From IMG/VR virus record IMGVR_UViG_3300023180_000359, positions 1 through 25,725 of that record: 25,725 nt of DNA. One strand, written 5' to 3'. Positions within the stretch are counted from its first letter, which is position 1. Each line of letters opens with the position of its first letter. The position numbers and the translations under genes are program-made. The notes beneath the pieces were generated by a model. That model was not told the origin of the DNA. It saw only the letters and a program-made list of their open reading frames with translations, and did not search any database. The stretch comes from a virus. Positions 7,928 through 12,459 of the stretch are shown in pieces.

Positions 7928-8380
7928 CTATGACACGATTTCAAAGTGGGGAGCGTCAATAAATGGCCTGCGCCCTTGTCCACGGCGTGTGTCAATATAA
8001 TCATTCATAGCGGATTCCATGCTACCTTCCCAATAAGCAATGTTCGGCACAGTCCATGCGGCTCCCCACTTTATAGGCACGTCAACTGCCCTAGCGCCTT
8101 CTGCCATCGCATCCGCAATTTCATCATACAGATTTAATTCCCAACGATCACCTGCGCAGTAAGCCATAAGATCTACGGCGTGACCATCAAGATGCTTACT
8201 CTTCATAGTCTTGCTTGCACCTTTAGCGACCAACACACGCTGCTCTTCAATAGTTCTCAGCCCACAAATCACAGAAAAATCTTGTTTCGTCACTGATATG
8301 GCATAACGGACAACAGCCACCATACGCTCATCCACGCCCTCTAGCTTCTCCAAGCTGCGCTTGCCTAACTTATAACTCAT
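7928..8380 (-). CDS. Endolysin, peptidase M15 (L-alanyl-D-glutamate peptidase type)
   Basis: The 150-residue protein has the zinc-peptidase signature SKHLDGHAVDL (residues 61-71) and DAPHFE (142-147). Expected zinc ligands are H63, D70 and H145, with D142 as the catalytic acid. The spacings of seven between the first two ligands and three between the acid and the last histidine match the phage T5 endolysin. The enzyme would cut the peptide stem of peptidoglycan at the end of infection. No signal peptide is visible, so it should depend on a holin. The start ATG at 8380 overlaps the stop of the upstream holin-like gene (ATGA) and has AAGGTG five bases upstream. The gene is intact and of usual length for this family. 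Confidence 0.9.
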   Translation of the reverse strand: MSYKLGKRSLEKLEGVDERMVAVVRYAISVTKQDFSVICGLRTIEEQRVLVAKGASKTMKSKHLDGHAVDLMAYCAGDRWELNLYDEIADAMAEGARAVDVPIKWGAAWTVPNIAYWEGSMESAMNDYIDTRRGQGRRPFIDAPHFEIVS

Positions 8381-8835
8381 GGTTTCACCTTCATATATTT
8401 TCCTACAGCCCTACCCCCAAACCAAAAACTGATTATGGCGGCAAACAATCCAGATGTTGCATCATCCCATATTAACGAAAGAGAACGCCCTAAATCATTA
8501 CCTGCGTCCATTAGAGCAATAAGAGCCGTTACTTTGATGGCAACAAAAAGAGCAAAGAAAACGTAAGTAATGACAGGACGGACAGACCCTCTAAGTCCAT
8601 TAATGAACCAACCAGCATCGATACTGTCATGCTTGTATAAACCTTCCGTCTCTTTAATCTCCGCTTGCTTGTCCATGATGTTAAGCTGCAATTCATTGCG
8701 TTTTGCCATCATGTCCATTTCAAGCTGCATCCGTTCAAGATTGTGCTTATGCTCCTGCCCAGCCTTAAAATAATTCAAAACCTCTGGCAAAAACGATGTA
8801 CCAAAACCAAGCAAGCTGCCAAGAAGTGTAATCAT
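8377..8835 (-). CDS. Holin-like membrane protein (three hydrophobic segments, coiled coil)
   Basis: The 152-residue protein begins with a hydrophobic segment (ITLLGSLLGFGTSFLPEVL). A charged helix or coiled coil rich in M, E and K (residues about 26-66) follows, then two transmembrane segments, PVITYVFFALFVAIKVTALI (from 86) and SGLFAAIISFWFGGRAVG (about 128-145). The layout resembles the three-TM holins described for gene-transfer-agent release (GTA_holin_3TM). Its coupling to the endolysin (ATGA overlap) supports a lysis role. The start codon ATG at 8835 has no good ribosome-binding site but overlaps the stop of the 32-codon gene upstream, suggesting translational coupling. The coiled coil between membrane segments is unusual for a simple pore. 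Confidence 0.65.
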   Translation of the reverse strand: MITLLGSLLGFGTSFLPEVLNYFKAGQEHKHNLERMQLEMDMMAKRNELQLNIMDKQAEIKETEGLYKHDSIDAGWFINGLRGSVRPVITYVFFALFVAIKVTALIALMDAGNDLGRSLSLIWDDATSGLFAAIISFWFGGRAVGKYMKVKP

Positions 8836-8930
8836 ACCATCACCGTCCCATATAAACTCATCTTTGTGTTGAGCAGAAACTCAAGCGCCCTAACCATAAG
8901 GAACACTATAAAGTCCTCAACGGTTGTCAT
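8832..8930 (-). CDS. 32-residue hydrophobic peptide in the lysis cassette
   Basis: This is a short gene easily missed by length cut-offs. The product begins MTTVEDFIVFLMVRALEFLL, is hydrophobic and probably helical, and ends in LYGTVMV. ATG at 8930 is preceded by GAGG six bases upstream, inside the last codons of the two-TM holin candidate, whose stop it overlaps in another frame. Its TGA overlaps the ATG of the next gene as ATGA. It therefore exactly fills what would otherwise be an 81-base spacer in a region where neighbours overlap or abut. A role as a small membrane lysis factor (antiholin, holin modulator or pinholin-like peptide) is inferred from location and hydrophobicity only. Confidence 0.6.
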   Translation of the reverse strand: MTTVEDFIVFLMVRALEFLLNTKMSLYGTVMV

Positions 8931-9165
8931 ACTTTTCCTCGTGAACAACCTTTTCAGACGTAACCGTAGTTTTAGACTCTTTGCCCATCCATATGCCGAA
9001 ACAACCCGTCAGAGCACCCATGCACACAGATACTAATCCTGATTGTGCTACTGATGGGTCAGGCAAACTCATAAACCAATGCACCGCTTGGTAGGTTAAG
9101 ATTGTAACCGCCAACATCATAAGACGTGGAAGCACCTTCCAATCATCAAGCATTGTACGTGCCAT
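8917..9165 (-). CDS. Holin candidate, two transmembrane segments
   Basis: The 82-residue product has two hydrophobic helices: LPRLMMLAVTILTYQAVHWF (about residues 12-31) and SGLVSVCMGALTGCFGIWMG (about 42-61). A short loop containing LPDPSVAQ lies between them, and a charged C-terminal tail (KTTVTSEKVVHEEKYDNR) follows. Size and two-helix topology with a charged tail fit a class II holin, which would permeabilise the inner membrane to release or activate the endolysin. ATG at 9165 directly follows the previous stop, with GGAGG five bases upstream encoded in that gene's last codons. The lysis assignment is supported by the downstream M15 endolysin. Confidence 0.7.
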   Translation of the reverse strand: MARTMLDDWKVLPRLMMLAVTILTYQAVHWFMSLPDPSVAQSGLVSVCMGALTGCFGIWMGKESKTTVTSEKVVHEEKYDNR

Positions 9166-9396
9166 TTAGACCTCCATATTTACGATCTGGCCTTGCGGCT
9201 GTAGTTGCGTATTCTGCGCCCCAAACTTATCATAACTGAGCATTAAATCAAGTTGCGCACGTTCTAGAGCTTTAGAGAGCTTGTGAGCGCGTAAATGCTC
9301 CTTTTGAACCTGTTGCTGTGCCTGATGATTTTCGATGCTCTCACGGCTTCTCTGTGTCTCTACAGCAAATGGCAGGTTTCCTACGGGATCAAGCAT
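9166..9396 (-). CDS. Small Gln-rich helical protein, unknown
   Basis: This 76-residue protein is not recognised. The middle (residues 15-55) is strongly helical and rich in Q, E, R and H (IENHQAQQQVQKEHLRAHKL), consistent with a short coiled coil. There is no membrane segment and no cysteine. It overlaps the upstream gene by eight bases. Its last codons supply the GGAGG ribosome-binding site of the holin candidate, so its translation probably sets holin expression. It sits in the lysis cassette, but no function can be read from its sequence. Confidence 0.6.
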   Translation of the reverse strand: MLDPVGNLPFAVETQRSRESIENHQAQQQVQKEHLRAHKLSKALERAQLDLMLSYDKFGAQNTQLQPQGQIVNMEV

Positions 9397-9856
9397 TGGC
9401 GAGCCACACGAATCCTACGAGGCACCCCACCCCTATGATGAATAGTAATATTCCTGCCACCCATTCTAAGATCTTTTGTTTGATCTCCATCTTACGAAAC
9501 TCATGTTCACGCTTTTGTTTTCGTATCTCGGCTTCTATTCTCAGAAATTCTTGCCAGTGAGATGGTCCTAGTATGGCTGGGTGCGATATTAAGTCCCGCA
9601 ACTCATCACGCATCTTTTGGGCCTGCTTCCGCGCTAGAAACACTTCCATAGCTTGCGCCTGTGCTCCTCCACCCAACGCCTTGTACCAAGGAGGTTTCTC
9701 CGCCATCTTTTCGGCTTGGTCAATATCAGCCATGCAGTTAGCCCATTTCTGCAACTGTTGGCCCATATCTCCGAGTTCACGGCCGACTTGAACGCCTTGC
9801 TTTAAAAAACGGTAAGCAGCCTGTGCGCCTGCAATCGCAACGCCTATCTCTATCAT
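9389..9856 (-). CDS. Conserved phage protein, coiled coil with C-terminal membrane anchor
   Basis: The 155-residue product starts with a moderately hydrophobic helix (IEIGVAIAGAQAAYRFLKQG). It then has the segment SDIDQAxKMA-like DIDQAEKMAEKPPWYKALGG (about 44-63), a long charged helix (residues 75-130) and a C-terminal hydrophobic segment, WVAGILLFIIGVGCLVGFVW (about 132-151). I recall similar uncharacterised proteins in marine cyanophages and pelagiphages. A membrane-anchored, helix-rich protein at the head of a lysis transcript could be a spanin-like or lysis-timing protein, but no lipobox or signal peptide is seen. It is the first gene after the promoter at 9910-9938; ATG at 9856 has only a distant GAGG. 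Confidence 0.65.
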   Translation of the reverse strand: MIEIGVAIAGAQAAYRFLKQGVQVGRELGDMGQQLQKWANCMADIDQAEKMAEKPPWYKALGGGAQAQAMEVFLARKQAQKMRDELRDLISHPAILGPSHWQEFLRIEAEIRKQKREHEFRKMEIKQKILEWVAGILLFIIGVGCLVGFVWLANA

Positions 9857-10256: not shown

Positions 10257-10549
10257 GTTGTTGTCACCGTTACTGAACCAACTGCACCTGTCCCAGAAGA
10301 GCCACGAGCATGTGGAACATTTGTTCGAGTTATTTTTACAAAACCATCCTGCTGGAACAATGCGCCTACTTCCAAACCACTATCATCAGTCTGCAAGTCA
10401 GTAAGAGTTAACTTTGTCGCACGTTCTTCGCCCGGGTTTTGTTGCTGCTGCATATATGTAGAAAAACTCCGCGTTAAGTTTGCGAAGTATTGCTGATCAT
10501 ATTCTCTTGGGGGTACCGCAAAGTACGGAAGGATTAAGTCACGAGACAC
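10253..10549 (-). CDS. Small tail-associated structural protein, GTG start
   Basis: The 98-residue protein contains DLILPYFAVPPREYDQQYFA near its N-terminus and QQDGFVKITRTNVPHARGSS near its end, and finishes in GAVGSVTVTTT. The last motif matches the repeat unit of the protein at 21906-22760. I place the start at GTG 10549, not at TTG 10600 in the same frame, for two reasons. GGGAGG lies five bases upstream, encoded by the last codons of the gp10-like gene. The stop and start also share one base (TAGTG). The tight coupling suggests a protein made in proportion to the tail protein. The exact role is unknown. Confidence 0.7.
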   Translation of the reverse strand: MSRDLILPYFAVPPREYDQQYFANLTRSFSTYMQQQQNPGEERATKLTLTDLQTDDSGLEVGALFQQDGFVKITRTNVPHARGSSGTGAVGSVTVTTT

Positions 10550-12459
10550 TACCGCCTCCCGTCTGTTCTTATATCCAAGCGTGGCGAACCAAGTCGCCAA
10601 CCAACACCGCTGTCATCGGACTCTATTCGGAATGCAAAGCTACGACCTCTCAAGCGCAAATGTACTTGGTTCGTAAACTGCTCAACAGGAACAGATGCGG
10701 TTTTGGTTACTGCTGATTCTGTTGATTGCAGGTAGTTGCCACCGGGGAAATTTCGGGTCTTAATCGTAATGTTAGCCGATGGGCTAGATGCTGTTGATCC
10801 TCTAAACGTCAAATCTGGTATCATACGGCGAATGAACGCGAAGCTGTCTCCATCACCAATATCTACTTGGCTTGATTCAATATACGCAGTAAAGGCAGAG
10901 CCATCGTCATCAAAGCCGCGTTCTTGTGTGTATAGATAATTGTTTGGGCCTGCAGCAATCGGATTATCAAAGATACCGCGATCCATCCAAAAACTACGAG
11001 CCAAAGTTCCGTAATACCAAACTTGCTGTTGATAGTTGTAAACTACATAACGGTCATTAGTTTCACTATTAGCTGACGGATAAAACCACCATATTTCACT
11101 GAACGCCGTGTTTGTTGCGGCAACAACTTTTTCACGTTGCAGTGTATTAAAGTCATCAAAAACAAAATCACGAACCGTACAGGGCAAACGTTGAACTGTA
11201 CCACCGTAAACATAGAACTCGTTTAAGCCCATCCAGAACACGTTGTCTTCAATCGCCACTGCAGATAACGGTCCCATAGTTGTGATATGCTCAGATATTA
11301 GGTTAATACCAAATGTAAATGGTGGTCCCAAGAACTGCATCGCGTACAGCGATTCATCGGTGTAAACCAGAATCTGCTGTCTTGTTTCTACTGCCGTGAC
11401 GATTTCAGAACCAGAGCCAAGACGAAGTTCGCCTGCAGTATTGTCTGGCCTTGTTTCCCAGTCCGTTAGACTTTCTTGACTAGAAAAGCGAATAACCAAT
11501 GGGTCTTGAACGCCGGGATCATTCTCTGGATCACACCCAAATGCAATAACGTGACGGTCACGGTCAGATACCAAAATTTGTTTGGCTATCGTAGGCGCAC
11601 TGTTTGATCCCGCTAATGAATCCAAACTAACCGCCCGTGTTGTAAATCCGCCTGTCTTATCCCAATAGTAAATGCCGCCGTTGCGGACATTCATTAACAG
11701 GTCTTCGCCAAAGTTATCGTGCGACCAGATACGCAGTGTGTTTGTCACGATAGGCGTAGTAGCCGCCGATCCCCACGCGCCACGGCCCCAAGTGCCAACC
11801 CCCCAACCTGCACCAGTTGCAGTGGTGTCTAGACCAACACTAACTTGATACGCAGCAACGCAAGACGCGCCACCGTTTCCAGTGTCAGAACCATCTGCGT
11901 CAACCTCAGTAGGGGCTAATGCGCCATCCACAGTGATGTCTTGTATCGTTGTTCCTGCGGAACGCGCTGTAATGGTGTAGTTGTTGTCATCAACTACGCT
12001 TACGACATAATACTCTTGGTTCAGTACGTCCGCTGTAATGTTGCCACCAAGACTTGTAGCACCGCTGAAAGTCATAAAGTCGTTGACCACGCAACCGTGA
12101 TTAGTGTCTGTGACTGTGATCGTTGATGATCCACTTGTTGCAGAGAAGGTTACGTCACCCGCAGCCGTTGTGTTGCGAATGGGCGTAATGTCGTTAAACA
12201 AACCACCGTCTTGGTTAATGTAATATTTAAGGGATGTGCCAATACCAATTAAGCGACTGTTGTCTAACGCCACCCAAGGGTGCATCGCACGGGCTGTTCC
12301 GAGATAAGATGCTGATGCAAACTTCTCCCACCCACCAATTTTCTCAGGCATACCAAAGCGAAAGCGTACTTTGTCCACATCGTACCAACCACCTTCGTTA
12401 GTATACGAGGTGGTTTCTCTGTTTACTCCGGGCTTAAACTGTAGCTTGGTGAGAGGCAT
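10549..12459 (-). CDS. P22 gp10-like tail (stabilisation/needle-complex) protein
   Basis: The 636-residue product looks like the gp10-type tail or packaged-DNA stabilisation proteins of short-tailed phages. It starts MPLTKLQFKPGVNRETTSYT with GGWYDVDKVRFRFGMPEKIG. Many short beta repeats follow (FGEDLLMNVRNGGIYYWDK, LVYTDESLYAMQFLGPPFTF, IEDNVFWMGLNEFYVYGG), as expected for a propeller-like fold. Residues about 101-165 look like an inserted beta domain (GDVTFSATSGSSTITVTD). Residues 218-230 contain GWGVGTWGRGAWG, a tryptophan/glycine motif shared with the protein at 21906-22760. It would cap or seal the tail tube below the adaptors. ATG at 12459 has AGGTGG four bases upstream. Confidence 0.75.
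   Translation of the reverse strand: MPLTKLQFKPGVNRETTSYTNEGGWYDVDKVRFRFGMPEKIGGWEKFASASYLGTARAMHPWVALDNSRLIGIGTSLKYYINQDGGLFNDITPIRNTTAAGDVTFSATSGSSTITVTDTNHGCVVNDFMTFSGATSLGGNITADVLNQEYYVVSVVDDNNYTITARSAGTTIQDITVDGALAPTEVDADGSDTGNGGASCVAAYQVSVGLDTTATGAGWGVGTWGRGAWGSAATTPIVTNTLRIWSHDNFGEDLLMNVRNGGIYYWDKTGGFTTRAVSLDSLAGSNSAPTIAKQILVSDRDRHVIAFGCDPENDPGVQDPLVIRFSSQESLTDWETRPDNTAGELRLGSGSEIVTAVETRQQILVYTDESLYAMQFLGPPFTFGINLISEHITTMGPLSAVAIEDNVFWMGLNEFYVYGGTVQRLPCTVRDFVFDDFNTLQREKVVAATNTAFSEIWWFYPSANSETNDRYVVYNYQQQVWYYGTLARSFWMDRGIFDNPIAAGPNNYLYTQERGFDDDGSAFTAYIESSQVDIGDGDSFAFIRRMIPDLTFRGSTASSPSANITIKTRNFPGGNYLQSTESAVTKTASVPVEQFTNQVHLRLRGRSFAFRIESDDSGVGWRLGSPRLDIRTDGRR

What the first reader, a model, noticed from the sequence alone, without database searches (positions are those of the whole stretch)
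8832..8930. Overlooked 32-residue membrane peptide in the lysis cassette
A 33-codon frame has a good GAGG site six bases before its ATG, overlaps the holin candidate at its start and forms an ATGA overlap with the following holin-like gene. It fills the only sizeable gap in the cassette, and the product (MTTVEDFIVFLMVRALEFLL...) is hydrophobic. The downstream gene lacks its own good ribosome-binding site, so translation of this peptide may be needed for it. It could be a new small lysis regulator.
Basis: partly seen in the sequence, partly recalled or inferred. Interest (0 to 1): 0.6.

Follow-up and report, generated by a model that had tools for sequence, protein, structure and literature searches.

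The report
Conserved 32-residue phage lysis-cassette peptide
A very short gene hidden between two cell-bursting (lysis) genes of a marine bacterial virus is real: about a hundred related virus sequences keep its protein, its length and its interlocking with the neighbouring genes, so it is probably a small membrane-associated helper or regulator of lysis, although its function is untested.

Summary
The 33-codon frame at 8832-8930 (-) is a real protein-coding gene. Relatives occur in 98 distinct IMG/VR contigs (45 different proteins, down to about 35-41% identity to the window copy). All are 31-32 residues, and in all 98 the stop codon overlaps the next gene's start (77 ATGA/TTGA, 21 TAATG). 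pN/pS is 0.21 (p ~1e-35), with V13, E17, M24 and Y27 invariant. The peptide sits between three upstream and four downstream membrane-protein families in eight combinations; one downstream family is a clear holin (PF11351/phrog_3427). It is an optional module: 59 of 80 relatives of the upstream gene lack it, and most of those join the neighbours directly by ATGA. One lineage keeps only an 8-codon remnant.

Two parts of the reading need correcting. The downstream gene does have good anti-Shine-Dalgarno complementarity. And because the neighbours couple without the peptide, selection acts on the product, not on coupling. AlphaFold gives one helix (residues 3-20); hydrophobicity is borderline for a transmembrane span, so membrane association is inferred.

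Best reading: a small membrane-associated lysis accessory, probably modulating the holin-type neighbours. No Pfam, PHROG, PADLOC or PDB family matches, and no isolate phage or GTDB genome was found to carry it. Function is untested.

The parts
8832..8930 (-). 32-residue peptide gene (MTTVEDFIVFLMVRALEFLLNTKMSLYGTVMV)
   Evidence: 98 contigs with homologues, pN/pS 0.21, fixed length
8937..8940 (-). GAGG Shine-Dalgarno core of the peptide gene, 6 nt before its ATG, inside the 3' end of the upstream gene
   Evidence: sequence; anti-SD duplex -5.9 kcal/mol
8917..8930 (-). 14-nt overlap of the upstream gene's 3' end with the peptide's 5' end
   Evidence: 11 or 14 nt in 96 of 98 relatives
8832..8835 (-). 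ATGA stop/start overlap with the 152-aa gene
   Evidence: a stop/start overlap is kept in 98 of 98 relatives
8917..9165 (-). upstream gene U1: 82-aa membrane protein with two hydrophobic segments by inspection, holin-like candidate (phrog_10198, unknown function); a homologue overlaps a lysozyme gene in phages CRP-406 and HMO-2011
8377..8835 (-). downstream gene D1: 152-aa membrane protein (phrog_6637; weak similarity to the phrog_3427 holin, E = 0.0075); occupies the slot filled by a PF11351 GTA_holin_3TM protein in D4-type relatives
7928..8380 (-). endolysin (M15-type peptidase; phrog_465, E = 2e-44)

Best explanation
A genuine small protein gene, an optional and exchangeable module threaded between two holin-type genes of a marine phage lysis operon. 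It is translated in order with its neighbours (11-14 nt overlap upstream, 4 or 1 nt downstream), so its product is made in step with them. The product is a mostly hydrophobic helix (about residues 3-20) carrying K/R14 and E17, followed by a strongly conserved [N/G]-x-[K/E]-M-x-L-Y tail. I infer that it binds in or on the inner membrane and tunes hole formation or its timing by contacting a holin-type neighbour (antiholin-like or holin-accessory). Shown: a coding gene, product-level selection, conserved gene overlaps, cassette context, optional presence. Inferred: membrane location, partner, and the sign of the effect.
For: 98 distinct contigs encode it, as 45 proteins of only 31 or 32 aa. 26 disjoint pairs give 157 synonymous and 111 nonsynonymous differences over 569 and 1900 sites: pN/pS 0.21, p = 1e-35, and 0.195 outside the upstream overlap. 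V13 is encoded by all four GTN codons yet is always V; L26 varies at codon level; Y27 uses both codons. Constraint is strongest at residues 21-27 (0.07), which overlap no neighbouring gene. Context is constant while partners vary: U1, U2 or U3 upstream and D1 to D4 downstream. D4 is GTA_holin_3TM (PF11351, E = 2e-20; phrog_3427 holin, E = 1e-34). Endolysin-type genes follow in many loci. On the U1 tree the peptide's presence changes 4 times while downstream type changes 17 times, so it stays with the upstream gene rather than with D. AlphaFold predicts helix 3-20 at pLDDT about 80-87. Positions 3, 6, 10, 14, 17 and 21 fall on one narrow polar stripe. A functional precedent exists: BSPM4 ORF52, a 64-aa single-TM protein, binds a holin and delays lysis (PMC11657625).
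Against: No experiment. The hydrophobic stretch is borderline as a transmembrane span: best 19-residue Kyte-Doolittle mean 1.38-1.64, octanol-scale sums near zero in most members tried. Amphipathicity is only suggestive (p = 0.04-0.11 against shuffled columns). The peptide works with three upstream and four downstream families, which argues against a highly specific partner. Only D4 is a clear holin; D1 to D3 and U1 to U3 are holin-like by position and hydrophobic segments only. Lineages without the peptide are common, so it is not essential to this cassette type.
Confidence: 0.5

Rival explanations
1. The peptide is itself a small membrane-disrupting effector (a minimal holin, pinholin or holin helper) that adds to the holes made by its neighbours rather than restraining them.
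For: Hydrophobic helix with a narrow polar stripe (K/R14, E17) in a lysis cassette. Precedent: overexpressed BSPM4 ORF52 disrupts membranes by itself (PMC11657625).
Against: Borderline transmembrane hydrophobicity; its cassettes already hold one clear holin (D4) or two holin-like genes; it is often absent.
Confidence: 0.17
2. The peptide acts on the host membrane or a host membrane enzyme in a way unrelated to holin control (superinfection exclusion, cell-wall enzyme inhibition, outer-membrane step) and merely uses the late lysis operon for expression.
For: Compatible with free combination with different U and D families and with being optional. Small phage proteins that act on host factors are known (review PMC11323111).
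Against: Always at the same junction of a lysis-type cassette in every locus whose neighbours could be read; no hit to PADLOC families.
Confidence: 0.2
3. Only the act of translating the frame matters: it is a coupling spacer that carries ribosomes from U to D.
For: All stop/start overlaps are kept; the lineage that lost the peptide keeps an 8-codon mini-frame MISVEVEL with the same ATGA.
Against: Strong amino-acid constraint (pN/pS 0.21). Most relatives without the peptide couple U directly to D by ATGA. D has good anti-SD complementarity.
Confidence: 0.05
4. It is a leader peptide whose nascent chain slows or arrests the ribosome at its C-terminus and so meters translation of the downstream holin-type gene.
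For: The C-terminal half holds the most constrained part (residues 21-27, pN/pS 0.07) and D starts at the stop codon of the peptide gene.
Against: The helix core is also constrained (0.22); residues 28-32 follow the downstream gene's SD (YGS before ATGA, YQG before TAATG) rather than a fixed arrest motif; no known arrest motif was recognised.
Confidence: 0.05
5. A chance open frame without a function.
For: ORFs of this size are common in the window (73 of 25-45 aa).
Against: Conserved in 98 contigs with fixed length, product-level selection and conserved overlaps.
Confidence: 0.01

Closest known systems
BSPM4 ORF52 (64-aa single-TM protein that binds the holin ORF37 and delays lysis; PMC11657625)
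   Same: Small, hydrophobic, phage-encoded, plausibly acting on a holin at the inner membrane.
   Different: ORF52 is twice as long with a predicted N-terminal TM segment; by its ORF number it lies apart from the holin, endolysin and spanin genes (ORF37, 38, 40). Sequence homology was not tested here.
Dual-start antiholins (lambda S107, phage 21 S71; reviewed in PMC9636201)
   Same: Lysis-timing factor made in step with the holin at the same locus.
   Different: Those are N-terminally extended forms of the holin itself. The peptide is an independent frame; a possible upstream TTG start in the window has no equivalent in many relatives.
GTA_holin_3TM family (PF11351; phrog_3427)
   Same: Immediate downstream neighbour (D4) of the peptide in 21 of 98 contigs.
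   Different: The peptide is a separate 31-32 residue protein without detected similarity to it.
Small phage gene families predicted at scale (Fremin et al. 2022, Cell Rep 39:110984, seen here only as a citation in PMC11364881 and PMC11323111)
   Same: Short conserved phage genes predicted by comparison.
   Different: Whether this family is among them could not be checked; the paper is not held in the library.

Membership tests
Real protein-coding small gene | Frame, length and amino acids conserved under purifying selection across relatives | tested here: met
   98 contigs, 31-32 aa, pN/pS 0.21, p ~1e-35
Real protein-coding small gene | Translation product detected | not testable with these tools
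   Needs ribosome profiling or mass spectrometry of an infected host
Lysis-cassette member | Lies with holin and endolysin genes, in related phages too | tested here: met
   D4 neighbours are PF11351 holins; M15 endolysin or muramidase-like genes follow in many loci
Dual-start antiholin (S107 type) | Shares the holin's frame with an N-terminal extension | tested here: not met
   Independent frame; upstream in-frame start missing in many relatives and a weak SD for the TTG in the window (-2.9)
Holin (known families) | Sequence match to a known holin family | tested here: not met
   No Pfam hit and no PHROG hit better than E = 0.03 for any of 27 members
Holin / pinholin | At least one transmembrane helix | tested here: inconclusive
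   Helix 3-20 predicted; hydrophobicity borderline
Antiholin (functional sense) | Binds a holin and delays lysis | not testable with these tools
   Needs co-expression and lysis-timing experiments
Spanin (Rz/Rz1) | Lipobox cysteine (o-spanin) or TM plus periplasmic coiled coil (i-spanin) | tested here: not met
   No cysteine in any of 45 variants and only 32 residues
Translational coupling spacer only | No amino-acid constraint; needed to link the neighbours | tested here: not met
   pN/pS 0.21; neighbours overlap directly by ATGA when it is absent
BSPM4 ORF52 family | Sequence homology | not tested
   The ORF52 sequence was not fetched

The most novel reading that the evidence does not exclude
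A widespread, previously unnamed family of 31-32 residue lysis-timing proteins that works as a plug-in regulator, combining with several different holin-type families, either as a membrane helix that gates heterologous holins or as a nascent-chain regulator of the downstream gene's translation.
Probability: 0.2. Interest if true: 0.7.

Novelty: new variant of a known kind. Interest (0 to 1): 0.45.

Why it matters
Lysis cassettes of uncultured marine phages are poorly annotated. A conserved, optional 32-residue gene placed exactly between two holin-type genes, kept while its downstream neighbour is exchanged, is a testable candidate for a minimal lysis regulator. It also shows how small overlapping genes can be recognised from overlap and codon conservation. 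The same comparison points to unknown-function families (phrog_6637, phrog_2524, phrog_10198) that sit in holin slots.

Tried and rejected
Chance frame: rejected by conservation. Coupling spacer only: rejected by amino-acid constraint and by relatives whose neighbours overlap directly. Dual start with the upstream TTG (8948): not conserved and weak SD. Homology to known families: none in Pfam, PHROGs (best E = 0.03, two members), PADLOC or PDB. Isolate phages: two tblastn searches found nothing, though BLAST's low-complexity filter may hide so short a query. GTDB species genomes: 37 pattern matches, none a relative. Homology of D1, D2/D3 and D4 to each other: hhalign on shallow alignments gave no support. 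AlphaFold of D1 was poor (pLDDT 61), so no fold search was run. Amphipathic-helix statistics were only suggestive. One tally of junctions failed on an off-by-one and was redone; the first SD table mis-set the TAATG starts and was replaced.

Full report
What is in the sequence. The window is a 25,725-base virus record, apparently from a tailed marine phage; its large structural protein at 10549-12459 has full-length relatives in Roseobacter, Pelagibacter and other phages. On the minus strand the order is: a 76-aa gene (9396-9166), U1 of 82 aa (9165-8917), the peptide (8930-8832), D1 of 152 aa (8835-8377), and an M15-type endolysin (8380-7928). The peptide has GAGG six bases before its ATG, overlaps U1 by 14 nt and shares ATGA with D1. 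As a bare frame it would be unremarkable: 73 ATG-started ORFs of 25-45 aa exist in the window and 11 have a GRAVY of at least 1.0.

Conservation. Three profile searches of IMG/VR gave 98 distinct contigs with a homologue: 45 different proteins from 52 different gene sequences. Identity to the window copy falls to about 35-41%. Every homologue is 31 or 32 residues long. In every one the stop overlaps the following start: 77 by ATGA or TTGA, 21 by TAATG. The 5' end overlaps the upstream gene by 14 nt in 64 contigs and 11 nt in 32. Over 26 disjoint pairs there are 157 synonymous differences on 569 sites against 111 nonsynonymous on 1900, pN/pS = 0.21, binomial p = 1e-35; leaving out codons 1-6 gives 0.195. 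All 52 sequences have stops in the two other forward frames. V13, E17, M24 and Y27 never change; V13 uses all four codons. By segment pN/pS is 0.22 (helix core, 7-20), 0.07 (21-27) and 0.49 (28-32, where the downstream SD lies).

Context and modularity. Three kinds of upstream gene (U1; U2 of 110-116 aa; U3) and four kinds of downstream gene (D1 to D4) occur, in eight combinations. D4 is the GTA holin family (PF11351 E = 2e-20, phrog_3427 holin E = 1e-34). D1 is only weakly similar and D2/D3 belong to phrog_2524 of unknown function. Relatives of U1 directly overlap a lysozyme gene in phages CRP-406 and HMO-2011. L164 and L165 have an identical peptide gene followed by D2 and D1 respectively. 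Among 80 loci found through U1 alone, 21 have the peptide and 59 do not; in most of the 59 U1 overlaps D directly by ATGA. Five contigs (L017, L022, L024, L028, L032) have instead an 8-codon frame ending in the same ATGA, MISVEVEL in four and MISAEVEL in L024; on the U1 tree the remnant (L017) groups with a peptide-bearing contig (support 98), which suggests loss by in-frame deletion. On that tree peptide presence changes 4 times and downstream type 17 times. The tree is short (159 columns) and many branches are weak.

What this says about mechanism. Coupling alone cannot be the reason for the peptide: the neighbours couple without it, D1 has its own anti-SD complementarity (-13.0 kcal/mol in a simple duplex calculation with an assumed anti-SD), and the amino acids are selected. 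AlphaFold gives helix 3-20 and an extended tail. The polar positions 3, 6, 10, 14, 17 and 21 fall within 80 degrees of the helical wheel, with all other positions from 7 to 20 (apart from T/V9) hydrophobic in all 45 variants; the family moment is only suggestive (p = 0.04-0.11), and the transmembrane scores are borderline. I therefore infer a membrane-associated helix, transmembrane or in-plane. Because it stays with the upstream gene while D is swapped, a partner, if there is one, is more likely U or something constant in the host membrane than D; but the 11-14 nt overlap would also tie it to U mechanically, so this is weak.

Comparison with the known. No family matches in Pfam, PHROGs, PADLOC or the PDB, no isolate phage and no GTDB genome. 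The nearest functional precedent I read is ORF52 of Salmonella phage BSPM4, 64 aa, which binds the holin and delays lysis (PMC11657625). Dual-start antiholins (PMC9636201) are a different design. Large catalogues of small phage genes exist; I could not check whether this family is already listed in them.

Verdict. The interpretation as a new small lysis-associated protein is well supported at the level of 'a selected small protein of the lysis cassette' and unproven at the level of 'regulator'.

Noticed in passing
L253:2676-3005 (+); also L216, L242, L250: The U2-type upstream gene (110-116 aa) has an N-terminal EF-hand-like loop DLNGNGKIDPDE (Pfam EF-hand_5 E = 0.006, below cut-off) before hydrophobic segments, in a holin-like position: possible calcium-responsive lysis protein.
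   Followed up: partly
L188, L189, L181, L167, L197, L198: just after the D gene: Another very small conserved frame, MEMWQWILLFTAVSLNTLVNCWRLYLEKKR..., 33-35 aa, starting at the stop of the D gene; also looks membrane-associated.
   Followed up: no
window 8377-8835 (-) and 8917-9165 (-); D2/D3 genes of relatives: phrog_6637, phrog_10198 and phrog_2524, all of unknown function, sit in slots that hold a PF11351 holin in other relatives or next to endolysin genes; candidates for holin annotation.
   Followed up: partly
L017, L022, L024, L028, L032: 8-codon remnant frame (MISVEVEL or MISAEVEL) between U1 and D1 that keeps the ATGA overlap, probably an in-frame deletion of the peptide.
   Followed up: yes
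L145, L153, L155, L157, L158: U1 overlaps by about 35 nt a gene for a lipobox-like protein (MRNLIASLILGSLLAGC..., MKKAIKVLLIAGSLLLASC...), perhaps an outer-membrane spanin subunit.
   Followed up: no
window 9389-9856 (-): 155-aa protein with a hydrophobic C-terminal segment (phrog_32327, unknown function) just upstream of the lysis genes.
   Followed up: no
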